Made by a program: the position numbers and the translations under genes. Positions 228-13,389 of a stretch of 64,000 nt of DNA are shown here, in pieces. Location: assembly GCF_001886715.1 (NCBI RefSeq), contig NZ_CP018082.1, positions 3,348,001 through 3,412,000 on the forward strand, read 5' to 3'. Position 1 is the first letter of the stretch. Every line of letters starts with the position of its first letter. Source of the DNA: Nocardia mangyaensis (lineage in GTDB: Bacteria > Actinomycetota > Actinomycetes > Mycobacteriales > Mycobacteriaceae). Under the pieces are notes generated by a model. The model saw only the letters and a program-made list of their open reading frames with translations, ran no database searches and was not told where the DNA came from.

Positions 228-1406
228 ATGCTTGACGCTGCGCAGCACGCAGCCCGCTCGCTGGCAGGGCAGGTGCGGGCGACAACCCTGCGATACACCG
301 GCTCGGACGCTGAGCCGGATGCCCACCGCCGACACCGCGCGGTGAGTGAGCTGCTCGGCACCGGTCTGATCGACCTCGTCATCGAGCCCTCGGCCGTCGA
401 CGATCCGACGCGCCTGTTCTGCACGGCGCTGGAGACGATCGCGCTCCACTCCGTAGAGCTGGCCGAAGCCGTTCAGGTGCAGGCCTTTTCGGTGCGCACC
501 ATCCGACGCCACGCCACTGCGGCGCTGTGGGCGGAACTGGGCGAGGGCTTGCGCTCGGGTGCCGTGCCGATCGCCAACTGCCTCAGCGAACCCGCGGCCG
601 GGTCCGATCTGTCGGCCATCGAGCTCGCGGCCACCCGTGACGGCCCCTGCTTTCGGCTGAGCGGCTACAAGGATTGGGCGGCCTACGCCTCGCAGGCAGG
701 CGAACTGATCGTCTACGCGCGCACCAGTGCCGCCGGTCTCGGTGGGATCACCGCCTTCCTGGTGCCCGCCGACAGTCCGGGGGTCACCATTTCGCCCGCC
801 GCCGAACAACTGCGCGGGTTGTCGATTCCGGTGTCCGACATAGCTTTCGACGACGTACTCGTGCCGGCCCACCGGGTTCTCGGCCGCCCGAATCGTGGTG
901 TCAGAGTCGCCACCATCCTGCTCACCCAGGGGCGGCTCGGTCTTGCGGCCTGCGCACTCGGACTGGGGAACGCGGCATTCGAGCGGGCGCTGGAATTCGC
1001 GAGAACGCGGGTGCGATTCGGGCGTCCGATCATCGAACATCAGGGCATCGGATTCGCCCTCGCCGATATGGCGACCGGCCTGCAGGCCGGTCGCCAGCTG
1101 CTGCGCCACGCCTGCGAGGTGTTCGACCACGACCCCGACGGTGCTGTTCTGGCGTGCGCGCAGGCGAAGCTGTTCGCCACCGATACCGCCCAGCGGGTCA
1201 CCGCCGACGCCGTCCAGATCCTGGGCGCCAGCGCCTACCTTCCCGATGAACCGGTCGAGACGTGGATGCGTCAGGCGTCGCTGCTGCAGATCCTGCAGGG
1301 CACCAACCAGATTCAACGCAGAACCATCGTGGCGCGGCTCGGCGGCTCCGCACGGCCGACCAGGAGCGACGCGGCTCCCGACCTGCCCACCACGCCATTC
1401 GAATGA
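228..1406 (+). CDS. Acyl-CoA dehydrogenase family protein, first gene of the biosynthetic-type operon
   Basis: Predicted FAD-dependent acyl-thioester dehydrogenase of 392 residues, normal family length. The middle beta-domain shows the typical CLSEPAAGSD substrate-loop motif, and the C-terminal helical domain has RVRFGRPI and GTNQIQRR. The start is ATG 228 because GGGGGAGGA lies just upstream; an in-frame GTG at 186 has no comparable site. Oddly, the residue that aligns with the catalytic glutamate of MCAD (the E in YEGT) is Gln357 (LQGTNQIQ). The alternative base position used by isovaleryl-CoA dehydrogenase appears to be Gly (TQGRLGLA). It may therefore act on a carrier-bound substrate, use another base, or have lost dehydrogenase activity. 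The ACP gene follows at once, which favours an ACP-bound substrate. Confidence 0.85.
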   Translation: MLDAAQHAARSLAGQVRATTLRYTGSDAEPDAHRRHRAVSELLGTGLIDLVIEPSAVDDPTRLFCTALETIALHSVELAEAVQVQAFSVRTIRRHATAALWAELGEGLRSGAVPIANCLSEPAAGSDLSAIELAATRDGPCFRLSGYKDWAAYASQAGELIVYARTSAAGLGGITAFLVPADSPGVTISPAAEQLRGLSIPVSDIAFDDVLVPAHRVLGRPNRGVRVATILLTQGRLGLAACALGLGNAAFERALEFARTRVRFGRPIIEHQGIGFALADMATGLQAGRQLLRHACEVFDHDPDGAVLACAQAKLFATDTAQRVTADAVQILGASAYLPDEPVETWMRQASLLQILQGTNQIQRRTIVARLGGSARPTRSDAAPDLPTTPFE

Positions 1407-1426
1407 TCAGCACGGGAGGACAACCA

Positions 1427-1690
1427 GTGCCCCACCCAGCCGACGACACCCTCACCCACGCGGTGGCCGATCTGGTGGCTCAGGCCACCGACGGCATCAT
1501 CGACGTGTCGAGCACGGAGACCGCCGGAACGAGCTTCGCCGATGCCGGGATGACATCGCTGTCGTTCCTGCGGCTGGTCGACGCGTTGGAGATCCGCTAC
1601 GGCATCGAGATCGACCTGGAACACGACATCGGATCGATGCGCACGGTAGCGCTGATCGTGGAATACCTGCGCGCCCAAGGGCTGCCGTGA
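1427..1690 (+). CDS. Acyl carrier protein
   Basis: An 87-residue stand-alone carrier protein. The phosphopantetheine attachment serine lies in DAGMTSLSFLRL, followed by the acidic helix typical of ACPs (EIRYGIEIDLEHDIG). GTG 1427 is preferred because GGGAGGA sits 6 bases upstream. An ATG at 1403 overlapping the previous stop is possible but lacks such a site. Its place between a dehydrogenase and a DapB-like reductase, with an alpha-oxoamine synthase downstream, suggests it carries the acyl or amino-acyl intermediate of this pathway. It is too isolated to be the primary fatty-acid-synthesis ACP. Confidence 0.88.
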   Translation: MPHPADDTLTHAVADLVAQATDGIIDVSSTETAGTSFADAGMTSLSFLRLVDALEIRYGIEIDLEHDIGSMRTVALIVEYLRAQGLP

Positions 1691-2382
1691 TCAGCGGGGG
1701 AGTAGCGATCATCGGTGCCACCGGGCGGCTCGGCTCGGCGATCCACCGCGCATGCGACGACAACGCTGTCGCCGTGGTCGCCACCGCCGGCTCGGCAGGG
1801 TGGAACACCGAATCCGCCACGCCGGCCGTGGTCGTCGACGCGAGCCGACCCGCCGCGCTGCCCTCGACGATCGACTTCTGCGCACGGTCCGGCGCCGCGC
1901 TGCTGTACTGCGTGTCGAACCCGACGCCGGAGGGCCTGCGGCGACTGCGGGTGCTCGGCCGGGACGTGCCGGTCGGCCTGGTCACGAATCTCAGTCCACT
2001 GCAATGGATTCAGACCCGGTCGGCGCAGCTGTCGGCACGACTGGCCGGCATGTTGCAGCTGCCCGTCGAAGTCACCGTGATCGACCGGCACCCCGCCGCC
2101 AAGGCCGACGCCCCGTCTGCGACGGCCCGGCTGCTGGCATCGGCGCTGCCACTCTCGGCCACCGTGGCCTCCGAGCGCTTCGGTCCCCGCGTCTGCGACC
2201 ACCGGGTCGTGTTGACCGCGCGCGGTGAGACCTACGAGATCGCGCATTCGGTCCGGGACCTCGACCTGGTCGCGGCCGCGGCCGTGCGCCTGGCCGCACA
2301 GCTGGCGGGCTCGGCACCCGGGGTGTTCAGCACCGATGAGCTCTACACCCAGCTGACCTGCCGACGCGAGGGGGACCGATGA
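1687..2382 (+). CDS. DapB-like NAD(P)-dependent reductase
   Basis: A 231-residue protein resembling 4-hydroxy-tetrahydrodipicolinate reductase. The N-terminal Rossmann motif GATGRLGSAI (residues 10-19) binds NAD(P). The sequence DRHPAAKADAPSATA (133-147) matches the DapB signature (H)HxxxKxDAPSGTA, keeping the catalytic His135 and Lys139. It starts with GTG overlapping the ACP stop codon, so the two genes are translationally coupled. Context argues against housekeeping lysine synthesis: no other lysine genes are near, and the flanking genes are carrier-protein and C-C bond-forming enzymes. It probably reduces a cyclic imine or another carbonyl-derived intermediate. The substrate is unknown. 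Confidence 0.72.
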   Translation: MISGGVAIIGATGRLGSAIHRACDDNAVAVVATAGSAGWNTESATPAVVVDASRPAALPSTIDFCARSGAALLYCVSNPTPEGLRRLRVLGRDVPVGLVTNLSPLQWIQTRSAQLSARLAGMLQLPVEVTVIDRHPAAKADAPSATARLLASALPLSATVASERFGPRVCDHRVVLTARGETYEIAHSVRDLDLVAAAAVRLAAQLAGSAPGVFSTDELYTQLTCRREGDR

Positions 2383-3119
2383 CATCGGAACGACCATCGG
2401 GCCACTCGCCGCTCGTCATTCAGGCCGCCATCGGGGCACGCGCACTGTCGGCGCACGGTCACGACGATTTCAACCAGGGCCAGATCTCCTGCCGACGCCC
2501 CGGCAGCACACGGTTCATGATCAAGGGTGCCCTGGTCGGCTTCGACGAGGCCACACCGTCGCGATTCGTCGAGGCCGACATCGCCCCCGGCGCCGACGTG
2601 GACGCGCAAGCGCCGCCGGAGCTTCCCCTGCATCAGTCGATCTACGCGGCCCGACCGGAGATCGGTGGCATCGTGCACAGCCACGCACCCGCCGGACTGG
2701 CCTTCGGCGCCCTCGACGCGGAGGTGGAATCGCTCAGTCACGAGGGCGCGCTGCTCGCGGGTGCGGTGCGTCGATTCCGCGACACGAGCAACACGGTACT
2801 GACGCGTGAGACCGGCGATGCCATCGCGCGATGCCTCAGCGATGGGATCGCGGTGTTTCTGGTGAACCACGGCAGTGTCGTCGTCGGCCGCAGCGTGCGC
2901 CATGCCGTGGTCTTCGCGCTCATGCTGGAACGCGCGTGCCGCCTGCAACTGGACGTGCTCGCCACCGGCCGCGACTACGCGGTCTCCACCGCGGTGGATG
3001 TGGCGGCCAAACGCGACTACATCTTCGCCGACCTCTCGGTGCGGTCCTACTGGGAGCACACCCGCCGCCGGGTCCGGCGTTCGCACCCCGACATCGAAAG
3101 CTGGGTTCGACATGCATAG
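2379..3119 (+). CDS. Class II aldolase/adducin family protein
   Basis: A 246-residue metal-dependent aldolase-fold protein. The metal ligands are visible as HSHAP (about residue 106) and a second His in VNHGSVVVG, as in fuculose- and ribulose-phosphate aldolases. The start overlaps the previous stop by 4 bases, so it belongs to the same operon. Members cleave or form C-C bonds through an enediolate, or act as decarboxylase-type enzymes. The substrate cannot be read from sequence, but within this operon it may make or trim a hydroxy-keto intermediate. Confidence 0.82.
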   Translation: MTSERPSGHSPLVIQAAIGARALSAHGHDDFNQGQISCRRPGSTRFMIKGALVGFDEATPSRFVEADIAPGADVDAQAPPELPLHQSIYAARPEIGGIVHSHAPAGLAFGALDAEVESLSHEGALLAGAVRRFRDTSNTVLTRETGDAIARCLSDGIAVFLVNHGSVVVGRSVRHAVVFALMLERACRLQLDVLATGRDYAVSTAVDVAAKRDYIFADLSVRSYWEHTRRRVRRSHPDIESWVRHA

Positions 3120-4284
3120 CATCGCCACCGCGCCGATGGCCTGGAAGGATCTCATCGACCCCGTCGCGCCACAGATCGCGCGGATGGAGCCGCTCGGGGG
3201 CCGGGTAGCCGGGGTCGTGACCCGGATCGAGGAGATGATCGGCCGCGGCGGTGCCTCGTCGCTGCGCCGTGTTCCCTCCGCGGGTGCCACCTATCCGTAC
3301 GAAATACTGCTCGTCTCACCGGCTTCGACGTCGGTGGTCCTGGTGGACCTGGTTCGTCGGCAGGTGGTGGCTCGCGCAGGTGACTGCTTCGATGTCGACG
3401 CCGACAGCTATGCCTGCCTGCTCGTGGGACGCCCGTGGCTGTCGATGCGCAAGTACGGTCCGCGCGGATATCTGTATCACCTGATCGACGGTGGTCATGC
3501 GATTTTCGACCTGGCGCTGCTGAGCGTCACCGAACCACCGCCCGGTCCGGGTACGGGTCTGCTGCCCGGTTCACACGACACCGTGATCGGTGACGTCCTG
3601 GCGGCGGGCAGGATCACCGCCGGTGCACCTCGCTCGTCGAGCAGATGGCGGCTGGTGACCACCGCGGACGCGCACGTGCAGTCCGGACGCACCGCCTTCG
3701 AGAAGTGGGCCACGCGGATCAGCCCGCCTGCCCCGGCCCCGGTGGTCTTCGATCGCGTCGGGAACCTGCCCGGACAGCCGGAACGAGCCGTCACCGCGCG
3801 CCGGTCGGCGGGGTCGTTCACCCCGGGCTACGACACCGAACCGCTGCGGCGAGTCATCGCCTCGGGGGTGCGATGCGCGGACAGCGCGCTCGAGCAATTG
3901 AACCTGCCGCGGCCCGTGGTGCAGGTCACCGGGCACGGTGCCGCGGCGGTGACGCGGCCGCCGACCGATCTGCTGGCGGCACTGGGCGGACAGGACCATC
4001 TGATCGGCGCGGATGCCTACGTCGTGATCGGTGTGCCGACCCGCGGCGACGACACCATCGATCACCGGCGTCAGGGCCTGCTGATCGCCGCAGGGGTCGT
4101 CGGGCAAGCGCTCTATCTCGCGGCGACCGAATCGGGTGCCGCGGTCACCGGAATCGGTGGCATCGACCCGAGCGCGTGGAACCGGGTGCTCCCCGCCGGT
4201 CAACAGGCTCTCTATCTCATCGCCGTGGGCGGCTCCGCCGACGGGGAGAAGTTCGACGCGCTGCACCCGGGCAGCCACGGCTGA
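3112..4284 (+). CDS. SagB-like nitroreductase-fold oxidoreductase
   Basis: A 390-residue protein with the SagB/nitroreductase signature RRVPSAGATYPYE near residue 55 (flavin phosphate-binding region). A second half carries AGVVGQALYLAATESGAAVTGIGG, typical of the FMN-binding dimer interface. There are apparently two tandem half-domains, as the length exceeds that of a single nitroreductase. The ATG overlaps the aldolase gene by 8 bases. SagB-type enzymes oxidise azolines in thiazole/oxazole peptides, but no YcaO cyclodehydratase is nearby. It is more likely a general FMN oxidase, for example of a ring or amine in this pathway. Confidence 0.72.
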   Translation: MHSIATAPMAWKDLIDPVAPQIARMEPLGGRVAGVVTRIEEMIGRGGASSLRRVPSAGATYPYEILLVSPASTSVVLVDLVRRQVVARAGDCFDVDADSYACLLVGRPWLSMRKYGPRGYLYHLIDGGHAIFDLALLSVTEPPPGPGTGLLPGSHDTVIGDVLAAGRITAGAPRSSSRWRLVTTADAHVQSGRTAFEKWATRISPPAPAPVVFDRVGNLPGQPERAVTARRSAGSFTPGYDTEPLRRVIASGVRCADSALEQLNLPRPVVQVTGHGAAAVTRPPTDLLAALGGQDHLIGADAYVVIGVPTRGDDTIDHRRQGLLIAAGVVGQALYLAATESGAAVTGIGGIDPSAWNRVLPAGQQALYLIAVGGSADGEKFDALHPGSHG

Positions 4285-4295
4285 GGGGCGACACG

Positions 4296-7103
4296 ATGAC
4301 CACGACGATTCCGTCCGCCGCCGAGGTGTCGCGCGCCGAGCATCGGCAGGCGAGCCGCGTTCTCGCGGCATCCTTCGCCGACGACCCGGTGTGGCGTGCG
4401 CTGAGACCCCGCCGCCGCCGCCGTGCCGACCTGGCGCTGTACTGGATCTTTCGCTGCGAGATCACCATCGCGAGGGCGCTCGGGGGCCACCTGCTCGCAG
4501 CCCGCGACATCGACCGCCACATCACCGCCGTCGTCATCGCCTACTCGCGGTCCCGACCGGGATTCCCGTGGTGGACTGCCATTCTGCGGATTCCCGCCAT
4601 GGTCCTGCTCGGCCCGGGTCGCACGTTCCGGGCAGCTCGGATGGCGCTGGCCGCCCAGGCACACCAACCGGACTACCCCCATGTGTACGGCTTCTATGCC
4701 GGGTCGACCACGCTCGGTGGCGGAGCCGCTCTGCTGAAGCGGTTGATGCGAATCGCCGAGCACGCGGGACTTCCGGCCTACGGCGAGGCCAAATCGCCCG
4801 AGTCACGGGAAATCATGCGAATTCTGGGTTGGCGGATGTCGGAACCGATCGACATCGGAGACGACCGCCAGCTGACCCCCGCCCGATGGGATCCACCGAA
4901 CCACCCTGCCCCTGCGAGGCCTTCCGAGAACGGAACATCGATGATCGATCGTTTGGCGGGCATCGCCGGCCGCGCCCCCAAAGCTGTGCTGGCCGTCATC
5001 GGCATCGCCTTCGTTGTCCTCGGAGTCCTCGGCGCACCAGTGGCCGAGCGGTTGTCCGCCGGCGGATTCATCGGTTCCGAGGCCGAATCCGCGCGCGCCA
5101 CAGCAATTCTCGAGCGTGACTTCGGTCTGTCGGGAATGCAGTTGGTGCTGGCGGTCGAGTCGGACTCGGGCGCGCTGGGGGCAGCCGCAGACGAGCGGGC
5201 GAACCGGATCGTCACCGAACTGCGCGCCGATCCACGGATTCAGGCGGTGCTGTCGCCGTGGACCGAGCCGCTGGCCCGCGCCACACTGGTCAGTGACGAC
5301 GGCCGGATCGGACTGATCGTGGCCACCGTTCGCGGTGGTGACGACTCGGCTCCGGGGACCGCGCACGAGGTGGCCGAGCGCCACACCGGGAGCGACGGCG
5401 GTGTCGAGGTGCGTGCGGGCGGCCAGTCGATTCTCTTCCACGACGCCAACACCCAGGCCGCGCGCGACCTGCTGCTGGCCGAGGCGGTCGCCCTGCCGTT
5501 GTGCTTCCTGCTGCTGGTGTGGTTTCTGCGCAGTGCCATCGCGGCGGCGATCCCGATCATCGTCGGGATGGTCGCCATCGTGGGCACCACCGCGATCCTG
5601 TATGCCTTGACGTTCGTCGTCGAATTGTCGGTGTTCGCGCTCAATCTCACGACCGCGATCGGTCTCGCCCTCGCCATCGACTATTCACTGTTGCTGATCA
5701 GCCGGTACCGCGAGGAGGTGGCCCGGGGCAGCGCGCCACCGGATGCCATCGCGATGGCCATGCGCCGGGGCGGGCGCGCCGTGGTGTTCGCCGGCGCGAC
5801 CGTGGCCATCGGCATCGTCGGCATGGTGTTCTTCCCGATGCCGTTTCTGCGCTCCATCGCCTACGCGGGCGTGGCTGTCGTCACCTTGACGGTTCTGTTG
5901 GCACTCATCATGGTTCCCGCTCTGCTCACCGTGCTGGGCGAGCGGATCAACCGCAAACCGCTGCGCGAGGCCACCCCCGTCGAGCAGACCCGGTTGTACC
6001 GGACCGCCCGCGCGATACAGCGACGGCCACTGCTGGTCGCCGTGCCGATCGTGGCGTTGCTGCTGGCGCTCGGGGCACCGGTGCTCGGCTTGCGGCTCGG
6101 ATTGCCCGACGATCGGGTGCTGCCGGCGACGGCCGCGGCCCATCAGGTCGGCGACGACCTGCGGGAACGCTTCTCCGACAACCCGACCGGTGTCGTCCAG
6201 ATCGTGGTGACCGGGGACCGGGCCGACGACGCGGTCGCGCTGGCCGACTATTCGGCCGAGATCTCCCGGGTAGCCGGGGTATCGGGCGTGGTCGGACCAA
6301 CGGGTGCCTACGCCGGTGGTCTGCGCGTGGCCGACGGTGACACGGCCATGGCAGGCCAGCGATCCGCGTACCTGACCCTGTCGACCACCTCCGATCCGTA
6401 TTCCACCCAAGCACGTGACCAACTCGATGCCCTGCACGCCGTCCCGGCGCCGGGGGACACCGCGTTCGGTGGACTGGCCCAGCAGACCCGCGACACCGCC
6501 AGCGGCATCAGCCAGGCCTTCCCCCTGGCCCTGGCCTGGATCGCGGTGGTCACGTTCGTGCTGCTGCTCCTGCTCACCGGCAGTGTGCTCCTGCCGCTGA
6601 AAGCCCTGGTGCTCAATACGCTGTCGCTGTCGGCGACTTTCGGCGCGATGGTGTGGATCTTCCAGGACGGACACCTGGGTGGCCTCGGCACCGTCGCCCC
6701 CGGCTATATCGCGGCGACCGTTCCGGCGTTGGTGTTCTGCACCGCGTTCGGGTTGTCGATGGACTACGAGATCTTCTTGCTCACGCGGTTCAAGGAGGAA
6801 TGGGACAACTCCGCGCGAACCAGGGCTGACAACGACACCGCTGTCGCGGTCGGACTCGCGCGCTCCGGACGGGTGATCACCGCGGCCGCGGTGCTGATGA
6901 CCGTGGTCTTCTCGGCCGTCATCACCAGCGATCTGTCGCTGATGCGCATGTTCGGCTTGGGGCTGACCTTGGCTGTCGTCGTCGACGCCACATTGGTCCG
7001 GATGCTGCTGGTACCCGCGTTCATGCGGTTGCTCGGCACCGGGAATTGGTGGGCTCCGGCATGGTCGCGGACCACCCTCGAACGGATGGCATTGCGTGAG
7101 TAG
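4296..7103 (+). CDS. GNAT acyltransferase-MMPL transporter fusion
   Basis: One uninterrupted frame of 935 residues after a GAGGGG site. Residues 1 to about 205 resemble a GNAT acyltransferase: RAEHRQASRVLAASFADDPVW at the start, then a late ALLKRLMRIAEHAGLPAY helix and an ESREIMRILGWRMSEPI segment like the C-terminal GNAT motif. From Met216 (base 4941) it is a full RND/MMPL exporter with two repeats of a periplasmic loop plus several membrane helices, including AIGLALAIDYSLLLISRYREE and AFGLSMDYEIFLLTRFKEE. No stop separates the parts. Met216 has only a weak ribosome site (GGAAC), so internal initiation is possible but not required. The fusion suggests acylation coupled to export of the pathway product. 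Confidence 0.83.
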   Translation: MTTTIPSAAEVSRAEHRQASRVLAASFADDPVWRALRPRRRRRADLALYWIFRCEITIARALGGHLLAARDIDRHITAVVIAYSRSRPGFPWWTAILRIPAMVLLGPGRTFRAARMALAAQAHQPDYPHVYGFYAGSTTLGGGAALLKRLMRIAEHAGLPAYGEAKSPESREIMRILGWRMSEPIDIGDDRQLTPARWDPPNHPAPARPSENGTSMIDRLAGIAGRAPKAVLAVIGIAFVVLGVLGAPVAERLSAGGFIGSEAESARATAILERDFGLSGMQLVLAVESDSGALGAAADERANRIVTELRADPRIQAVLSPWTEPLARATLVSDDGRIGLIVATVRGGDDSAPGTAHEVAERHTGSDGGVEVRAGGQSILFHDANTQAARDLLLAEAVALPLCFLLLVWFLRSAIAAAIPIIVGMVAIVGTTAILYALTFVVELSVFALNLTTAIGLALAIDYSLLLISRYREEVARGSAPPDAIAMAMRRGGRAVVFAGATVAIGIVGMVFFPMPFLRSIAYAGVAVVTLTVLLALIMVPALLTVLGERINRKPLREATPVEQTRLYRTARAIQRRPLLVAVPIVALLLALGAPVLGLRLGLPDDRVLPATAAAHQVGDDLRERFSDNPTGVVQIVVTGDRADDAVALADYSAEISRVAGVSGVVGPTGAYAGGLRVADGDTAMAGQRSAYLTLSTTSDPYSTQARDQLDALHAVPAPGDTAFGGLAQQTRDTASGISQAFPLALAWIAVVTFVLLLLLTGSVLLPLKALVLNTLSLSATFGAMVWIFQDGHLGGLGTVAPGYIAATVPALVFCTAFGLSMDYEIFLLTRFKEEWDNSARTRADNDTAVAVGLARSGRVITAAAVLMTVVFSAVITSDLSLMRMFGLGLTLAVVVDATLVRMLLVPAFMRLLGTGNWWAPAWSRTTLERMALRE

Positions 7104-7160
7104 GCCAGCCGACAGCGCGGCGACACCAAGGACACCGACAACAGATACGGGGAGACCACG

Positions 7161-8396
7161 ATGAGTCTGGCGAAGTTCCGCGAGCGGATCGATTACGCGG
7201 GAATGCGATTGCTGGTGCGCGAGCTGGAGGACCTCGGCAGGTCGCCGATCTTCCGGGTGATGCAGTCCGCCACCACTTCCCATGTCCGGGTGGCGGGCCG
7301 CCCCCGGCTGATGCTGGGATCCAACAACTACCTGGGTCTGGCCACCCACCCCGAGGTGATCGCGGCGTCTCATCGGGCCCTCGATCGATTCGGTGCGGCG
7401 AGCACCGGGAGCCGGGTGGCCAACGGTAGCTGCGAGGTGCACACCGAACTCGAGGCCGAACTGGCCGACTGGCACGGCACCGAGGCCGCCATGGTGGTGA
7501 CCACGGGTTACCAGGCGAACGTCGGCGTGGTGAGCGCTGTGGCCGGGCGCGGTGACGCGGTGGTGCTCGACTGGGCGGCGCACGCGTCACTGCACGACGG
7601 CGCGAGGATGTCGGGCGCGCAGGTCAGCCGGTTCGCCCACAACGACGTGGTCGAGTTGCGCTCGATCCTGTCCGCGGCTCGGTCGCCGGTGTTCGTGATC
7701 GTGGACAGCGTCTATTCGATGGACGGTGACATCGCACCGATCGACCAGATCGCCGCACTGTGTACGGAATTCGATGCCTTGCTGATGGTCGACGAGGCAC
7801 ACGGCGTGGGAATATTCGGCGCCGAGCGCACCGGCGCGGTGGAACTCTACGGCGCGAGTGGCGCTGTCGACATCCGCATGGGGACCCTGTCCAAGGGAAT
7901 CGGTTCCATCGGTGGCTACCTCGCCGGGTCGCGCGACCTGATCGACTACCTGCGCACCCACAACCGGGGGTATCAGTTCAGTACCGCGGGTACCCCGGCG
8001 TCGATCGCGGCCGCGTTGGCGGCGGTGCGGGTGATCCGTTCCGCGGAGGGCGCCGAGCTGGCGCACAGCCTGCTGGGCAATTCCCGGAAACTGCGAGATG
8101 CCTTGCTGGCGAGAGGCATTCCGGTCCAGGGGACGACTGTCACGCCCTGGGGGGACGATGTCATCGGCCCCATCGTGCCGGTCCCGGTCGCGGACGAGCC
8201 CGCCTTGGTGGAGCAGTGGAATCAGCTGTTCGAGCGCGGGATCTTCGCCGGGATCAGCGTATTTCCCGGTGTCCGGCTCGGCAGCCCCATGCTGCGCCTG
8301 TGTGTACAGGCCACCCACTCGGTCCCGGACCTCGAGTTCGCCGCCGACACGATCGCCGAAACGTATTGCCACGCCATGGAACCGTCCGCTTCCTGA
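7161..8396 (+). CDS. Alpha-oxoamine synthase (AONS/KBL/SPT family)
   Basis: A 411-residue PLP enzyme of the family of 8-amino-7-oxononanoate synthase, 2-amino-3-ketobutyrate CoA ligase and serine palmitoyltransferase. Visible motifs are SNNYLGL (52-58), TGSR, DEAHGVG (211-217) and the PLP lysine in TLSKGIGS (Lys245). The start has GGGGAGACC upstream. The family condenses an amino acid with an acyl thioester and releases CO2, giving an alpha-amino ketone. No bioB, bioA or bioD is nearby, so biotin synthesis is unlikely. The linked ACP and ligase suggest it condenses an ACP- or CoA-bound acyl group with an amino acid. Confidence 0.87.
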   Translation: MSLAKFRERIDYAGMRLLVRELEDLGRSPIFRVMQSATTSHVRVAGRPRLMLGSNNYLGLATHPEVIAASHRALDRFGAASTGSRVANGSCEVHTELEAELADWHGTEAAMVVTTGYQANVGVVSAVAGRGDAVVLDWAAHASLHDGARMSGAQVSRFAHNDVVELRSILSAARSPVFVIVDSVYSMDGDIAPIDQIAALCTEFDALLMVDEAHGVGIFGAERTGAVELYGASGAVDIRMGTLSKGIGSIGGYLAGSRDLIDYLRTHNRGYQFSTAGTPASIAAALAAVRVIRSAEGAELAHSLLGNSRKLRDALLARGIPVQGTTVTPWGDDVIGPIVPVPVADEPALVEQWNQLFERGIFAGISVFPGVRLGSPMLRLCVQATHSVPDLEFAADTIAETYCHAMEPSAS

Positions 8397-8425
8397 ACCT
8401 CGAACCACCGACAAGGATCCGCCCG

Positions 8426-8875
8426 ATGGGAACCATCGCCCTCACCAAACACCTGTCCAGCACGCCGCACGCCGTCTTCGACACCATCATCGACCCCGCG
8501 ACCTGGGAGCATTGGTTCAGTATCCACCGCTGCTTCGTCGGTGTGCCGCCCCAGCGGCTGGCCGAGGACTCGGTGCTGACATCGAAGGTGGCGCTGCTCG
8601 GGATGACCAATGAGATCGAATGGACCGTGACCGCGGCCGAGCGGTCGAGTCGCATCGCCCTGCTCGGTCGCGGCAAGGCGGGTGTCCGATGCGAATTCAC
8701 CTACCTCATGCGCGATTCCGGCGGGGGTACCGAGCTCGCGGCCGGCGGTGACTTCTCCGGACCGCTCATCACCGGTCTGCTCGCCCGAGCACTGGAGAAG
8801 CAAGGACGCGACCAACTGGGCGCGACGCTGGACCTGCTCGCTGCCCACGTCGCGGATGCCGGTCCGCCGAGGTGA
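8426..8875 (+). CDS. SRPBCC (START/Bet v1-like) family protein
   Basis: A 149-residue small-ligand-binding fold: it begins with TKHLSSTPHAVFDTIIDPATWEHW, the usual first strand and helices, and ends in an amphipathic C-terminal helix. AAGGA precedes the ATG. It is the last gene of the operon and ends only 4 bases before the convergent PucR gene. Such proteins bind hydrophobic ligands or act as cyclases or aromatases. Here it may bind or shape the lipid-like product. The function is unassigned. Confidence 0.72.
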   Translation: MGTIALTKHLSSTPHAVFDTIIDPATWEHWFSIHRCFVGVPPQRLAEDSVLTSKVALLGMTNEIEWTVTAAERSSRIALLGRGKAGVRCEFTYLMRDSGGGTELAAGGDFSGPLITGLLARALEKQGRDQLGATLDLLAAHVADAGPPR

Positions 8876-8879
8876 TCGC

Positions 8880-10079
8880 TCAGGCCGTTCGCGAAGGGTG
8901 AAACGCCCGGGCGACGACGGCCGACTTCAGTCGCCAGAGGCCAGTGGTGTGCGTCGCGTCGAGTCCGGTCAGGTTCGCGATACGGCGTAGCCGGTAGACG
9001 ACCGTATTGGTGTGCAGATGGAGGTGTCGGGCGGTGCGCTGGCGGTTCAGGTCATTGGCGATGTGTACGCGCAATGTCTCCGACAACTCGGGATGGGCAT
9101 CCAGCGGCGCGAGCAGTTCACCGAGCTCGGCCAAGCCGGGGCCGGGCCGGGTGAGCTGGTATTCCAGCGCGAGATCTTCGAATCGGTAGAGCCGCGCGGT
9201 ATAGCCGAGCCGGACGACGATGTCGAGAAGTTCGTGTGCGCGCTGTACGGCGTCCGGGATCGCGCCGGTCCTGGCGGGTATCACGGCCGCGACGACATCG
9301 ACCCGGGCGGCGGTCGAGAGCGACTCGATCAGGGCATCGAGTTCGGCGTCGTCGGGGTCCTCACCGGGGATCAGGACGGTCCCGCCGTCGACCGACAGCA
9401 TCGCCAGTGCGGGGTCGCCATGGTGTGCGAGCGCCGCGCGGATTCTGTGTAGCCTGCGCCGTGCGCTCAGTGCCTCGTCGTCGGGAGGGCGATCATGGGT
9501 GCTCCGGGGGATCGCTATGCCGATCACCCGGTAGTTCTCGGCCACATGGACGCCGGACTCGCGGGCCATGGTCGTCGTGGCGCGCCCGGCGAGGAGGGCC
9601 GAGGTCACGGTGCGTATCGCCGTGTGGTGCTCGCCGACCACCAGGCGGTATTCGTCCAGGTACGCGCTGATCATGGTGGTGGACATGAGGTTCGATACCG
9701 CGAGCGCGGCGCGGAGTCCGTTGGTCAAGGTGTCGCGGTCGTAGGTGGTACCGGCGGCGTAGACCGCGTCCAGGCTCAGCCGCAGCGCTTCGTGGAAGGC
9801 GCGGACAATGGTGTCGATCGGCAGGCCCTCACGGGCCCAGCCCGCCGCGGCGGTGGAGAGCCAGTCCAGTTTGTCGGAGACATCGCAGCCGTCGACGATG
9901 CCGCGGCCGATCTCCGCGCACATCCTTGTCGCCGTCGTGATCTCACCCGAGATCGCGTCGCCCAACTGAGTGCGGCGCGCGGCCACATGGTCGAGGAAGT
10001 GGCTGACCACCTGCCCGGTCAAGTCTCCGACATCGGCCTGCGGACGCCGAGTCGGTGAGTAGTCCATGTCGATCGCCAT
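8880..10079 (-). CDS. PucR/CdaR-type transcriptional regulator
   Basis: A 399-residue regulator with the C-terminal PucR helix-turn-helix (NRQRTARHLHLHTNTVVYRLRRIANLTGL region) after a divergent N-terminal sensory part and a degenerate GGDEF-like middle. The start is chosen at ATG 10079, which has AAGGAG 9 bases upstream. It lies downstream of the acyl-CoA ligase on the same strand (92-base gap) and converges on the eight-gene operon, so it is a candidate regulator of the cluster. Confidence 0.8.
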   Translation of the reverse strand: MAIDMDYSPTRRPQADVGDLTGQVVSHFLDHVAARRTQLGDAISGEITTATRMCAEIGRGIVDGCDVSDKLDWLSTAAAGWAREGLPIDTIVRAFHEALRLSLDAVYAAGTTYDRDTLTNGLRAALAVSNLMSTTMISAYLDEYRLVVGEHHTAIRTVTSALLAGRATTTMARESGVHVAENYRVIGIAIPRSTHDRPPDDEALSARRRLHRIRAALAHHGDPALAMLSVDGGTVLIPGEDPDDAELDALIESLSTAARVDVVAAVIPARTGAIPDAVQRAHELLDIVVRLGYTARLYRFEDLALEYQLTRPGPGLAELGELLAPLDAHPELSETLRVHIANDLNRQRTARHLHLHTNTVVYRLRRIANLTGLDATHTTGLWRLKSAVVARAFHPSRTA

Positions 10080-10171
10080 CGTCGGCTTCTCCTTGGTCGC
10101 ATTCATCGCACCGCGTGGGGTCGCCGGTGAGCCGAGCCCGCGGACAGCCGCACCCGGTGGATCCAGGGCTG

Positions 10172-11893
10172 TCACGGCGTATCGACGGCTTCGAGACGGT
10201 GGCGCAGCACTTTTCCGGTGGCGTTGCGTGGTAGTTCGCTGACGAAACGCACGTCGCGGGGAACCTTGTGCCGGGCCAGTGTTTCCCTGACGTAGTCCTT
10301 GATCTCCTGCTCGGTGCACGAGGAATCAGGGGCGCGAACCACATACGCGCGCAGGCGTTGTCCGAAATCGCGGTCGGGTACACCGACGACCGCCGCCTCC
10401 AGAACGTCGGGACGGTCGACGAGCAGGTACTCGACCTCGAGTGGATAGATGTTCTCGCCGCCGGAGATGACCATGTCGTCGTCGCGGCCGTCGATGAACC
10501 ATCGGCCCTCGTCGTCGAAATGCCCGAGATCGCCCGTGGAATGCATGCCGTCGACGATCTCCTTGCCGGTCCCGTCGGTGTAGCCGGTGAAGCTGAGCCC
10601 GCTGGCGACGAACAGGGTCCCGACCACGCCCGGGGTGGTGATGCGGCGGCGGTTCTCGTCGTAGACCGCGACCCGGCAGCCCACCGGCGGTCGGCCGACG
10701 GTACCCGGCGCCTCGCGCAAGTCCTGGGGTGTCGCGACCGCCGCGACGGCCACCTCGGTGGAGGCGTAGAGGTTGTAGAGCACGTCGCCGAAGTGCTGTG
10801 CGGTGCGTCGGCTCAGGTCCGGCGAGAGCGCCGACCCCGCCGAGAAGATGACCGTGAGCGCGGTGGTGTCGTACTCGGCCAGCACCGCCGGGTCCAGGTC
10901 GACGATTCGCTGGAGCATGGTCGGTACCAGGACCAGCGCGCTCGCGCGATGCCGGGCCACGGCGGCCAGCGTGCGGCGAGGATCGAACCGGTCCGGCAGC
11001 ACCACCATCGTGTTGCCCAGCGCCCAGCCCAGGATCAGCTGGGACAGGCCGGTGCCGTGGAACAGCGGCGCCGCGAGCACGATCGTGCTCGCCTTCGGCA
11101 ACGGGATCCGGTCCAGGAATTGAGCCGACTGCAGCGGTGAGACCTTGCCGCGCGGAGCACCTTTCGGTGTGCCGGTGGTGCCGCTGGTGAGTACGACGAT
11201 GCCGCCGGGGTCTTCCGGGGCGAGCAGGGGAAGCGCCGAGCGCGACGCGGAGATGCCGTGGATCGTCGGTAGGCCGCGCTGGTTGGTTTCCCCGGCACGG
11301 GTGAGGATGATCGAGATCTCCGGTGGGAGTTCGTCGAACAGGTCGGCGAACTCCGCATCGACCAGGAGTACGCCGATCTGTTCGCGTTCCAGGACCGCGG
11401 TCAGCTGTGGACCGGCCGTGCCGGTGTTGAGCAGCACGATGCGCGCGCCGAGTTTGCCCGCGGCGACCAGCGACAGGACCAAGCCGCGGTGGTCGCGGCA
11501 CATCGCGCCGAGCACGGTGCCGGTGGTGACGCCCCGCGCGGCAAGGCCGTTGGCCAGCCGGTTGGACGCCTGATCGAGCTGTTCGAAGGTGATCGGTCCG
11601 CGGTCGTCGATGAGTGCGGTGGTCGAGCCCGCGGCGCGGGTCGCGTGCGCCAACGTCGTCACCACCGGGCCGAGGGTGGTGGCGTCACGCGCCGTGCGAA
11701 CCAGCTCGAGCGGGTGCCGGAGCTCGACCGCGCCGCGTCGGTACAGGACGAGGGCTGCGGAGAGCGCATCGGCGACGGCACGCACGACGGCGGTCGGCGC
11801 GGAGGGGGCGGACGGCACGGATACCTCCGAGAGCTGGGTGGTCATCAGGGCTGAGCGGTCGGAGCCGGGTGCCGACTCGTCATTGCGGAGCAT
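10172..11893 (-). CDS. Fatty acyl-CoA ligase (ANL superfamily)
   Basis: About 573 residues, normal for acyl-CoA or acyl-AMP ligases. The AMP-binding loop reads LTSGTTGTPKGAPR, followed by an adenine-site motif (YNLYASTEVA) and the STGDLGHFDDEGRWFIDGRDDDMV hinge. The C-terminal catalytic lysine is in PRNATGKVL. It would activate a carboxylic acid for CoA or for the ACP encoded at 1427. The start is uncertain: ATG 11893 or ATG 11845, neither with a clear ribosome site. Dyad copy C sits 19 bases upstream of 11893. Confidence 0.86.
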   Translation of the reverse strand: MLRNDESAPGSDRSALMTTQLSEVSVPSAPSAPTAVVRAVADALSAALVLYRRGAVELRHPLELVRTARDATTLGPVVTTLAHATRAAGSTTALIDDRGPITFEQLDQASNRLANGLAARGVTTGTVLGAMCRDHRGLVLSLVAAGKLGARIVLLNTGTAGPQLTAVLEREQIGVLLVDAEFADLFDELPPEISIILTRAGETNQRGLPTIHGISASRSALPLLAPEDPGGIVVLTSGTTGTPKGAPRGKVSPLQSAQFLDRIPLPKASTIVLAAPLFHGTGLSQLILGWALGNTMVVLPDRFDPRRTLAAVARHRASALVLVPTMLQRIVDLDPAVLAEYDTTALTVIFSAGSALSPDLSRRTAQHFGDVLYNLYASTEVAVAAVATPQDLREAPGTVGRPPVGCRVAVYDENRRRITTPGVVGTLFVASGLSFTGYTDGTGKEIVDGMHSTGDLGHFDDEGRWFIDGRDDDMVISGGENIYPLEVEYLLVDRPDVLEAAVVGVPDRDFGQRLRAYVVRAPDSSCTEQEIKDYVRETLARHKVPRDVRFVSELPRNATGKVLRHRLEAVDTP

Positions 11894-11911
11894 AGCAAGT
11901 CAGAGAATGAG

Positions 11912-11924
11912 TAGTAACTTATTG
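11912..11924. promoter_or_regulatory. Dyad operator copy C (TAGTAACTTATTG)
   Basis: Copy of the shared dyad just upstream of the acyl-CoA ligase, with left context GAATGAG like copies A and B. The position is suitable for repression of the minus-strand ligase-PucR transcript. Confidence 0.5.
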
Positions 11925-11986
11925 GCAAGAAGTCGCAGGTTGTAGGTCCGAGCATCGCCAGGTTCTGCTACCTAGGAGAAAATGCA

Positions 11987-11999
11987 CAGTAACTTACTG
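11987..11999. promoter_or_regulatory. Dyad operator copy D, perfect (CAGTAACTTACTG)
   Basis: The best copy: CAGTAA and TTACTG are exact inverted repeats around one central base. It lies 75 bases from copy C (start to start), in the same divergent region. Confidence 0.55.
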
Positions 12000-12297
12000 G
12001 GTGCAGGTTCGTGATTCCGCGCCCAGCTGGGCCTGGACTGGAGTCCGTGCCGGCAGGAGATTCTCGAGCGGCTGTGCGCGGCGGGCCGCCGGGTCCTCGT
12101 GGTGACGCGCGAGTCTGTGCGGAGCAGCCCTTTCGGCTACTGGCCTCGCCGGTATCCGCAGGTGCCGGGTCAGGGTGGGAATCTCATGGAGGCGACGGGT
12201 GCCCGGTCGCCGGCGTGGCCGCTCGTTCAGTGGAGAACGATCGCCAACTTATATTCGTTCCGTATCGATGAATCCGCGTGTCAGAAGTGAGAATCAT

Positions 12298-12310
12298 CAG
12301 TAACATAGTT
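12298..12310. promoter_or_regulatory. Dyad operator copy E (CAGTAACATAGTT)
   Basis: Weaker copy with the left half-site intact (CAGTAAC) and the right half degraded. It is 80 bases before the DUF2236 gene start, with left context GAATCAT. Confidence 0.4.
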
Positions 12311-12390
12311 GGAGGCTGCCGAAACTGCCCCTCGGCGTCGATCCGCGTTGGTGACAGCCGAGGCGCGGGCACCTCTGGGAAAGGATGACG

Positions 12391-13389
12391 ATGACCACGG
12401 CAACGAAGCCCGGCGAACCCGAGTACGGAGATCCGAACAGCGACGGATACGTCGAGGAGGGGCCTGCGGCACAGTGGCGATCCGCGCAGCGCCCGTTCCC
12501 GGCGCAGGAGCAAGCCGTCGAGGAACTGACCCTCGAGCAGGTGCGCATTCACATCCCCGACACGTACCGCTCCCCGCGTAAGAAGCCGGCGCAACTGGCC
12601 GACTCGCTGGACTTCTGGATGTTCGCCGGCGCGGCGGCGAACGTGGCGATGCAGTTCGCGCACCAGGGTGTCGCGGCCGGTGTGATGGAAAGCCAGGTCG
12701 AATCCGGCGCGCTGATGGTGCATCCGTGGAAGCGGTTGCGCACGACGTCGGCCTACCTCGCGACAGCGGTGCTGGGTACCGACGAGGACAAGAAGGCCAT
12801 GCGCGAGGCGGTCAACGTCGCGCACCGTCAGGTCAAGTCGCGGCCGGGATCGAAGGTCAAGTACAACGCCTTCGACCGCAACCTGCAGATGTATGTGGCC
12901 GCTGCCATCTACATCGGCTTCGAGGACACGAACCAAATGCTGCACGGCAAGATGACCGCCGAGGAGCTGGAGGCCTTCTACCAGGGCGCTGACACTTTCG
13001 GCACCACCTTGCAGGTGCACCCCGACATGTGGCCCAAGACCCGCGCCGATTTCGACGCCTACTGGCTCGAGGCCTGCAAGGGCGTGGTGTGCGACGACGA
13101 ATTCCGTGCCTATATCGACGACCTGGTGCACCTTCGGATGATCCACTGGTCGCTGCGGATCGTCGCGGGCGGGCTCCTGCAGTTCTTGACCGCGGGCTTT
13201 CTGCCGCCGCACTTCCGCGAGCAGATGGCGATCGAGTGGAGCGAGTCGGACCAGCGCCGGTTCGAGCACCTCTTCCTGTTCGTCGGTTTCGTCAACCGAT
13301 TCATCCCGAAGTTCATCCGGTTCGCCGGTACCCACTCGATGATGCGTGATGTGCGCCGCCGCATCCGCAAGCAGAAGGCGCTGATCTGA
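12391..13389 (+). CDS. DUF2236 (MpaB/rubber-oxygenase-like) family protein
   Basis: A 332-residue protein with the hallmarks of the MpaB/Lcp family: an early helix DFWMFAGAAANVAMQFAHQGVAAGV, HPWKRLRTTSAYL, an NAFDRNLQMYVAAAIYIGFEDTNQM segment and a late LVHLRMIHWSLRIV helix. Conserved His residues in these helices are expected to bind a b-type heme. The start is ATG 12391 because AAAGGA lies 5 bases upstream; ATG 12385 overlaps that site. Dyad copy E is upstream, tying it to the ligase and the 228-8875 operon. It could oxidise or cleave an isoprenoid or acyl chain. The substrate is unknown. Confidence 0.8.
   Translation: MTTATKPGEPEYGDPNSDGYVEEGPAAQWRSAQRPFPAQEQAVEELTLEQVRIHIPDTYRSPRKKPAQLADSLDFWMFAGAAANVAMQFAHQGVAAGVMESQVESGALMVHPWKRLRTTSAYLATAVLGTDEDKKAMREAVNVAHRQVKSRPGSKVKYNAFDRNLQMYVAAAIYIGFEDTNQMLHGKMTAEELEAFYQGADTFGTTLQVHPDMWPKTRADFDAYWLEACKGVVCDDEFRAYIDDLVHLRMIHWSLRIVAGGLLQFLTAGFLPPHFREQMAIEWSESDQRRFEHLFLFVGFVNRFIPKFIRFAGTHSMMRDVRRRIRKQKALI

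What the first reader, a model, noticed from the sequence alone, without database searches (positions are those of the whole stretch)
228..12390. Uncharacterised gene cluster for an amino-ketone or acylated small-molecule/lipid
The sequence shows a coupled operon of ACAD-like, ACP, DapB-like, class II aldolase, SagB-like, GNAT-MMPL fusion, alpha-oxoamine synthase and SRPBCC genes, with an acyl-CoA ligase and PucR regulator opposite. ACP plus ligase plus alpha-oxoamine synthase implies condensation of an acyl thioester with an amino acid. A GNAT acyltransferase beside these recalls bacterial ceramide-type synthesis, where a serine palmitoyltransferase, an ACP and a GNAT-like acyltransferase cooperate. 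The DapB-like, aldolase and SagB-like genes do not fit any such pathway I know. No biotin, lysine or thiazole-peptide genes are present.
Basis: partly seen in the sequence, partly recalled or inferred. Interest (0 to 1): 0.8.

Follow-up and report, generated by a model that had tools for sequence, protein, structure and literature searches.

The report
Nocardia acyl-carrier cassette joined to aminoketone genes
Some Nocardia, including species known from human infections, carry a compact gene cluster that appears to build an unusual acid on a carrier protein, attach it to an amine made by a second enzyme set, and export the product; the acid-building genes match a poorly understood part of the pathway for the antibiotic paulomycin.

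Summary
In detail: ten genes of the stated families lie at 228-11893, eight of them a tight + strand operon. One component lies outside the window: a divergent adenylating enzyme about 345 bp from the ACAD start. A cassette (SagB-like, adenylating enzyme, ACP, DapB-like, class II aldolase-like; usually ACAD) is complete in 23 of 24 cassette loci scored, from Nocardia, Gordonia, Pseudonocardiaceae, Dactylosporangium and Bradyrhizobium. The same families in the same order are pau33-37 and pau39 of paulomycin (PMC4425429), where they were left unassigned or split between paulic acid and a sugar. The cassette goes with one of three unrelated acyltransferases: GNAT (10 of 24), condensation domain (9) or KAS III (3), never two; 2 have none. 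The GNAT loci also hold an amine-making set: AONS (4) or thioester-reductase-like enzyme plus aminotransferase (6). An AONS-ligase-MMPL module without cassette or GNAT exists in one Nocardia. Best reading: the cassette makes an acyl-ACP, GNAT transfers it to the AONS amine, MMPL exports the amide. The acyl group is unknown; two of the extra paulic-acid genes (KAS III, cysteine-desulfurase type) are not found here. The ceramide reading is not supported; the AONS is not the biotin enzyme.

The parts
228..1406 (+). acyl-CoA dehydrogenase-like (ACAD), Pau39-like member of the cassette
   Evidence: Pfam PF00441/PF02770; profile hit above 400 bits in 21 of 24 cassette loci, 74 bits in L024, none in L071 and L075
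1427..1690 (+). stand-alone acyl carrier protein (ACP), Pau35-like
   Evidence: PF00550 30.5 bits; profile hit in 24 of 24 cassette loci
1687..2382 (+). DapB-like reductase, Pau36-like; keeps the His and Lys that align with the active site of true DapB
   Evidence: PF05173 47 bits; TIGR00036 43 bits, below cut-off 122; family profile matches a DapB structure at 157 bits
2379..3119 (+). class II aldolase/adducin-like enzyme, Pau37-like; H100, H102, H164 and E81 invariant in 12 of 12 (metal-site role recalled)
   Evidence: PF00596 115 bits; alignment A6; 58% identical to a 249 aa Streptomyces albidoflavus homologue
3112..4284 (+). SagB-like nitroreductase-family enzyme, Pau33-like, invariant R-x-Y-G and LYHL-x-D-x-GHA
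   Evidence: PF00881 33.5 bits, TIGR03605 34.4 bits, below cut-off 78.4, alignment A1 of 18
4296..4940 (+). GNAT-fold acyltransferase domain, fused to MMPL
   Evidence: AF2 model, Foldseek; separate gene in 8 of the 10 GNAT loci, fused here and in L016
4941..7103 (+). MMPL exporter domain
   Evidence: PF03176 270 bits
7161..8396 (+). alpha-oxoamine synthase (AONS), not BioF
   Evidence: PF00155; BioF 329.6 bits below 426.45, SPT 325.8 below 500; PLP Lys motif TLSK
8426..8875 (+). SRPBCC/START-like protein that accompanies the AONS
   Evidence: PF10604; NF047960 110 bits over cut-off 100; present in 5 of 7 AONS loci scored
8880..10106 (-). PucR-type regulator (start uncertain, 10094-10319)
   Evidence: PF13556; homologues at L048, L040
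10172..11893 (-). FadD-like acyl-CoA ligase of the AONS module
   Evidence: PF00501/PF13193; 71% identical gene in L048, 63% in L053
12385..13389 (+). MPAB/Lcp-type oxygenase next to the cluster; a second copy lies on the other flank (L038:12629-13417)
   Evidence: the L038 copy matches PF09995; this one is 42% identical to it and was not itself run in Pfam

Best explanation
Two modules are joined. Module 1 is a paulic-acid-type acyl cassette: an adenylating enzyme (just outside the window) loads an acid without a free alpha-amine onto the stand-alone ACP, and ACAD, DapB-like, aldolase-like and SagB-like enzymes reshape it by dehydrogenation, hydride transfer, C-C or C-O lyase chemistry and oxidation. 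Module 2 (FadD-like ligase, AONS, SRPBCC, MPAB oxygenases) condenses an acyl-CoA with an amino acid to an alpha-aminoketone. The GNAT domain takes the acyl group from the ACP and puts it on the amine; the fused MMPL domain exports the N-acyl aminoketone. Shown: gene content, co-occurrence, acyltransferase swap pattern, family and GNAT fold. Inferred: every chemical step, the AONS donor, the order of steps, the product.
For: Cassette core complete in 23 of 24 loci. Among the 12 loci found by SagB, the aldolase gene is present in 11 (L024 lacks it); in the 10 loci found by the aldolase gene, SagB lies within about 5 kb in 10, two of these being the places already known as L021 and L022. GNAT occurs in exactly the 10 cassette loci that also hold an amine-making set (AONS 4, reductase plus aminotransferase 6); condensation domain in 9 others, KAS III in 3, none with two. 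The AONS-only locus L048 has ligase, MMPL, SRPBCC and MPAB but no GNAT and no cassette. Adenylating enzyme: Asn in 11 of 11 where an amino-acid A domain has Asp. Clade 2 reductase matches the thioester reductase model (94 bits, below cut-off 213); its aminotransferase matches putrescine aminotransferase (337.5 bits) and PigE (304 bits), both below cut-off. Midpoint-rooted cassette trees: GNAT loci form one clade, and the window and L039 group with the reductase/aminotransferase loci to the exclusion of L018 and L019, so the AONS loci are not a clade (FastTree 1.0 and 0.87, UFBoot 91 and 99). A GNAT-like acyltransferase, Plm19, is needed for paulomycin and was proposed to transfer paulic acid (PMC4802897).
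Against: No acyl substrate or product is known. The paulomycin authors disagree which enzyme transfers paulic acid (Plm19 GNAT or Pau29 KAS III). The ligase is beside the AONS in the window and L048 but about 15 kb away in L053, has no counterpart in the stretch of Gordonia L019 that is held, and L018 ends soon after the SRPBCC gene. L049 and L050 hold AONS without ligase, MMPL or SRPBCC. The branch placing L048 with the window AONS has UFBoot 57, so loss and gain of the cassette cannot be told apart. L043 has the cassette with MMPL but none of the three acyltransferases. The GNAT is nearest to an acetyl-CoA-using enzyme and may use acyl-CoA.
Confidence: 0.45

Rival explanations
1. Prodigiosin-like order: the AONS uses the cassette's acyl-ACP as acyl donor, releasing it as an aminoketone, and the GNAT then acylates the amine from an acyl-CoA made by the ligase.
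For: In the sister clade the AONS is replaced by a thioester-reductase-like enzyme plus class III aminotransferase, which would fit two ways of off-loading the same acyl-ACP as an amine. Precedent recalled: PigH.
Against: AONS with ligase, MMPL and SRPBCC exists in L048 without ACP and cassette; GNAT is absent there although an aminoketone would still be made; in other genera the cassette is paired with a transferase, not an AONS.
Confidence: 0.25
2. The cassette and the AONS module are neighbours only, making two separate products that share an exporter region.
For: The AONS module exists alone (L048); in L039 the MMPL groups with that of L048, not with the MMPL of the other cassette loci.
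Against: Tight spacing and overlaps in one direction in the window; the same pairing in four AONS loci, with different gene orders; GNAT fused to MMPL here.
Confidence: 0.15
3. Paulic acid itself (2-isothiocyanatobut-2-enoic acid) is made and attached, with the sulphur enzymes encoded elsewhere.
For: Six of the seven genes pau33-39 have counterparts of the same families here.
Against: No aminotransferase-V/cysteine desulfurase or KAS III profile hit in the stretches held of any of the 11 Nocardia/Gordonia cassette loci; deletion of either sulphur/nitrogen-side gene tested in S. albus (plm28, plm29) abolished paulomycins. The rest of the genome was not searched for such genes.
Confidence: 0.05
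4. Bacterial ceramide-type pathway (serine palmitoyltransferase, ACP, GNAT-like ceramide synthase).
For: Best solved-structure match of the AONS is serine palmitoyltransferase (248 bits); a GNAT and an ACP are present.
Against: Below the serine palmitoyltransferase cut-offs; no epimerase/SDR-type reductase among the Pfam results of the ten genes (no dedicated search for a ceramide reductase was made); the ACP belongs to a cassette that occurs without AONS in 20 of 24 loci.
Confidence: 0.06

Closest known systems
Paulomycin cluster, pau33-pau39 (plm31-plm37), Streptomyces paulus and S. albus J1074 (PMC4425429, PMC4802897)
   Same: Same families in the same order: oxidoreductase, acyl-CoA synthase, ACP, dihydrodipicolinate reductase, ribulose-5-P 4-epimerase homologue (= class II aldolase family), ACAD. 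L072-L074 carry the same set plus SDR, KAS III, aminotransferase V, LuxR regulator, glycosyltransferase, glyoxalase.
   Different: No PPTase noted and no KAS III or cysteine-desulfurase-type profile hit in the Nocardia clusters; joined instead to AONS or reductase/aminotransferase, GNAT and MMPL; in the window the ACAD is the first gene and the adenylating enzyme is divergent. Protein sequences of Pau33-39 were not available by name; only a 249 aa S. albidoflavus aldolase homologue was compared (58%; 85% to L072).
Triacsin and azaserine carrier-protein steps (Tri29/30/22/31, AzsP/Q/F/S; PMC10445470, passages only)
   Same: AMP-ligase, stand-alone CP, ACAD and an N-acetyltransferase work on a CP-bound small acid.
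   Different: No DapB-like, aldolase or SagB-like enzyme in the part of the gene table seen; there the N-acetyltransferase acts before loading.
Prodigiosin MBC pathway (PigI/G/A/H)
   Same: A enzyme, carrier protein, ACAD and AONS (pathway recalled).
   Different: ACAD 135.9 bits against a cut-off of 500 for PigA; AONS has no fused ACPs; no DapB, aldolase or SagB-like gene in that pathway (recalled).
Nocobactin SagB-type dehydrogenase (PMC7413640, passages only)
   Same: A SagB-type enzyme outside peptide toxins in Nocardia, linked to oxazoline oxidation.
   Different: Different cluster type; sequences not compared.

Membership tests
paulic-acid cassette (pau33-37, 39) | SagB-like, adenylating enzyme, ACP, DapB-like, aldolase-like, ACAD genes together | tested here: met
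   families and order compared with the table in PMC4425429
paulic-acid cassette (pau33-37, 39) | KAS III pau29 and cysteine-desulfurase-type pau31 | tested here: not met
   no profile hit in the stretches held of the window locus or the other 10 Nocardia/Gordonia cassette loci
paulic-acid cassette (pau33-37, 39) | ThiF-like pau30 | not tested
   no profile was made for it
paulic-acid cassette (pau33-37, 39) | the acyl group is paulic acid | not testable with these tools
   needs chemistry
BioF (biotin) | TIGR00858 cut-off and biotin neighbours | tested here: not met
   329.6 bits against 426.45; at L002 a bioA that passes its cut-off lies beside another AONS, which itself scores 384, also below
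serine palmitoyltransferase / bacterial ceramide | curated SPT cut-offs | tested here: not met
   325.8/500, 322.1/640, 253.6/670
DapB | TIGR00036 cut-off 122 bits | tested here: not met
   43 bits; another gene at 4668098 passes with 186.6 bits
DapB | His/Lys and D-x-P-S loop of the active site | tested here: met
   H135, K139, D141, P143, S144 invariant in 13 of 13, aligned to the same residues of DapB structures; the second His of true DapB is not kept; roles recalled
SagB (TIGR03605) | cut-off 78.4 bits | tested here: not met
   34.4 bits
alpha-amino-acid adenylation domain | Asp that binds the alpha-amine | tested here: not met
   Asn183 in 11 of 11, aligned to the FDG of a gramicidin synthetase A domain; role of the site recalled
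GNAT | GNAT fold | tested here: met

The most novel reading that the evidence does not exclude
SagB-like, adenylating enzyme, ACP, DapB-like and aldolase-like proteins form one undescribed carrier-protein pathway to an unusual (perhaps unsaturated or heterocyclic nitrogen) acyl unit that is passed around as a block and plugged into interchangeable acyltransferases; in Nocardia it caps an aminoketone or amine lipid that is exported by MMPL. This also means that Pau37 of paulomycin is not a sugar epimerase but part of paulic acid formation, together with the unassigned Pau33 and Pau36.
Probability: 0.45. Interest if true: 0.75.

Novelty: new variant of a known kind. Interest (0 to 1): 0.6.

Why it matters
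It turns scattered annotations into one transferable biosynthetic block, gives a testable role to three paulomycin genes that were unassigned or given to a sugar, and predicts a new class of exported Nocardia metabolite; the block is present in species such as N. farcinica, N. cyriacigeorgica and N. abscessus. Its authors called the logic of the isothiocyanate group of paulomycin an open question (PMC4425429 of 2015); clusters with and without the sulphur-side genes separate the acyl steps from the sulphur steps.

Tried and rejected
Pyridomycin / pyridine formation: tried because Dactylosporangium hosts a cassette; search listings and passages of PMC10683483 gave no gene match. Karnamicin hydroxypyridine: passages of PMC9838390 show an ACAD only, other logic. 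Cispentacin AmcH: where it was listed, adenylating enzymes of the family score 63-84 bits against it, cut-off 370, and generic acyl-CoA ligases score higher. Plasmid origin: no match for SagB or aldolase in PLSDB at the limits used. Literature on the cassette: full-text searches returned nothing; 70, 71, 93 and 98 led only to the papers cited; only an open-licence library was searched, so print elsewhere is not excluded. Class sample: 1 of 394 genomes (own) with the aldolase at E <= 1e-60. Order sample with SagB: 5 of 298, four of them weak; two of these four (G111, G150) later proved to hold distant cassettes, so that search underestimates; G098 and G204 were not followed up. Genus search: 14 of 150 matched: 9 full length, G303 a divergent cassette, G390 and G350 remnants, G364 and G368 not followed up.

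Rows dropped before counting: L041, L055, L067, L068 (same places as L015, L018, L022, L021). L038 and the window count as one locus. In one search 29 loci were scored, 24 with the cassette, 5 without (L042, L044, L048, L049, L050). The gene caller is home-made and trained on ten window genes; it missed genes in Bradyrhizobium L020, which were read; one search uses stop-to-stop frames so that gene calling does not decide presence. Profiles for one search were built partly from the loci scored. Loci were found by SagB or aldolase, so the gene used for finding is present by construction. Second structure job and pdb_via search were not used.
Full report
Setting. The window is genome position 3348001-3412000 of a 7.31 Mb single-contig genome. 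Same-genus hits lie at the same contig positions as loci of named Nocardia records (for example N. abscessus, N. beijingensis, N. cyriacigeorgica), so the genome is a Nocardia.

What is there. Coordinates, overlaps and families are as in the observation check. Among the NCBIfam matches shown, only the SRPBCC gene passes a curated cut-off (for the ligase 25 of 102 families were shown); the others fall below the cut-offs of the families they resemble, so names are family-level only. The SRPBCC hit is to a model named Rv0910-type toxin; here the gene goes with AONS in 5 of the 7 AONS loci scored (window, L018, L019, L039, L048; not L049, L050).

Missing enzyme found. In the other Nocardia and Gordonia cassette loci an AMP-binding enzyme sits just before the ACP. 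In this genome it lies divergently about 345 bp from the ACAD start, outside the window (L038:13438-14883 -). The family has an Asn in 11 of 11 aligned members where an amino-acid-activating domain has Asp, and its best full-length solved relatives are acyl- and aryl-CoA ligases. It should therefore activate an acid without a free alpha-amine (inference from recalled structure rules).

Conservation. Close SagB homologues are few: 25 proteins at E <= 1e-3 among 8000 candidates scored. A scan of the genome collection with two peptide patterns found 12 loci. A search with the aldolase profile in 297 genomes of one family of the order (Pseudonocardiaceae by inference) found 10. The aldolase has at least 392 protein relatives at E <= 1e-50; many of the 120 listed are from Streptomyces. 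In 29 loci scored by profiles, 24 carry the cassette; SagB, adenylating enzyme, ACP, DapB-like and aldolase-like genes are all present in 23 of 24. ACAD is present in 22 of 24, once only weakly (L024, which also lacks the aldolase gene).

Link to paulomycin. PMC4425429 (passages with the gene table, allose and unassigned genes; the paulic acid section whole) lists pau33 oxidoreductase 496 aa, pau34 acyl-CoA synthase 478, pau35 ACP 98, pau36 dihydrodipicolinate reductase 250, pau37 ribulose-5-phosphate 4-epimerase 249, pau38 PPTase, pau39 ACAD 380. Loci L072, L073 and L074 show SagB-like, adenylating enzyme, ACP, DapB-like, aldolase, ACAD in this order, preceded by SDR, KAS III, aminotransferase V and a LuxR regulator, as pau28, 29, 31 and 32 (no pau30 counterpart was noted); L076 has a PPTase next to the aldolase gene, as pau38. 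A 249 aa S. albidoflavus protein, very likely Pau37/Plm35, is 85% identical to the L072 aldolase and 58% to the window's. The authors left Pau33 and Pau36 unassigned and gave Pau37 to allose. The cassette occurs in other contexts, among them the Nocardia ones, where no sugar gene was seen in the stretches annotated; this argues that Pau33, Pau36 and Pau37 act on the ACP-bound acyl group. This is my inference; no Pau sequence other than the homologue above was compared.

Swap of partners. GNAT is found in 10 of 24 cassette loci, a condensation domain in 9, KAS III in 3, never two together; L024 and L043 have none of these. The 10 GNAT loci are those with AONS (window, L018 N. cyriacigeorgica, L019 Gordonia, L039) or with a thioester-reductase-like enzyme plus class III aminotransferase (L013 N. 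higoensis, L014 N. beijingensis, L015 N. shimofusensis, L016 N. farcinica, L017 N. abscessus, L040). On midpoint-rooted trees of three cassette proteins the GNAT loci form one clade, and the window and L039 group with the reductase/aminotransferase loci rather than with L018 and L019 (FastTree 1.0 and 0.87; UFBoot 91 and 99). So, most simply, one amine-making set replaced another while cassette, GNAT and MMPL stayed. Among structure matches of the GNAT are the Ebony condensation domain (rank 14) and SbzI (rank 24), which as I recall take acyl groups from carrier proteins; both are weak (E 1e-4 to 6e-4), far behind the puromycin enzyme, which uses acetyl-CoA.

AONS module alone. L048 (genome G425, not among the SagB hits) shares flanking genes with the window on both sides and holds MMPL, SRPBCC, AONS (71%), PucR, MPAB, ligase (71%) and MPAB (82%) but no cassette and no GNAT. 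G353 has the cassette with a free GNAT, an MMPL that groups with that of L048 (support 1.0), and a ligase about 15 kb away beyond an mce-like operon. This favours an acyl-CoA donor for the AONS and the cassette acyl group as the cap. Against it: the AONS tree places L048 with the window only weakly (UFBoot 57), and L049 and L050 hold AONS without ligase.

Decay. L042 and L044 keep MMPL and MPAB genes; L042 has a SagB C-terminal piece and a GNAT N-terminal piece, L044 a SagB piece with in-frame stops. The system is being lost in some lineages.

Prevalence. Within 150 Nocardia genomes: 10 with the cassette (9 full-length SagB hits, this genome included, and the divergent G303); AONS at E <= 1e-120 in 6, three of them without a full SagB hit.

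Verdict. A real, conserved, modular cluster; the acyl cassette is of a known but uncharacterised kind; the combination with AONS, GNAT-MMPL and ligase was not found in the library searched. Chemistry remains to be shown.

Noticed in passing
L038:146-10557 (upstream of the window): Operon that looks like mce lipid import (two permease genes matching TIGR00056 below its cut-off; the mce label is recalled) flanks the cluster; related flank genes occur at L048, L053 and L017, so the site is shared.
   Followed up: partly
window 12385-13389; L038:12629-13417; L039, L048, L042, L044, L049: MPAB/Lcp-type oxygenase genes recur beside the AONS or MMPL genes in Nocardia, often two or more copies; role unknown.
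   Followed up: partly
window 8426-8875: Gene passes the cut-off of a model named Rv0910-family toxin, yet it travels with AONS; no antitoxin gene was noted beside it. The model name may mislead here.
   Followed up: partly
L042:9146-9709, L044: Remnants of SagB-like (both) and GNAT (L042) genes beside an intact MMPL gene: loss of the cassette.
   Followed up: partly
L020:9194-18504: A complete cassette with a condensation-domain-like protein, luciferase-like monooxygenase and MFS in Bradyrhizobium cytisi, the only non-actinobacterial case among the 12 named loci; probably acquired by transfer.
   Followed up: no
L020-L023, L043, L069, L070: A luciferase-like monooxygenase gene lies next to ACAD in these 7 cassette loci but has no profile hit in the GNAT-type or KAS III-type loci.
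   Followed up: partly
L024:9770-20292: Divergent cassette relative in Actinokineospora pegani with a larger SagB-like protein, two AMP-binding enzymes and no aldolase gene in the stretch held; may be a related but different pathway (PMC4425429 lists KedU31 and KedU34 of kedarcidin as relatives of Pau33 and Pau35).
   Followed up: no
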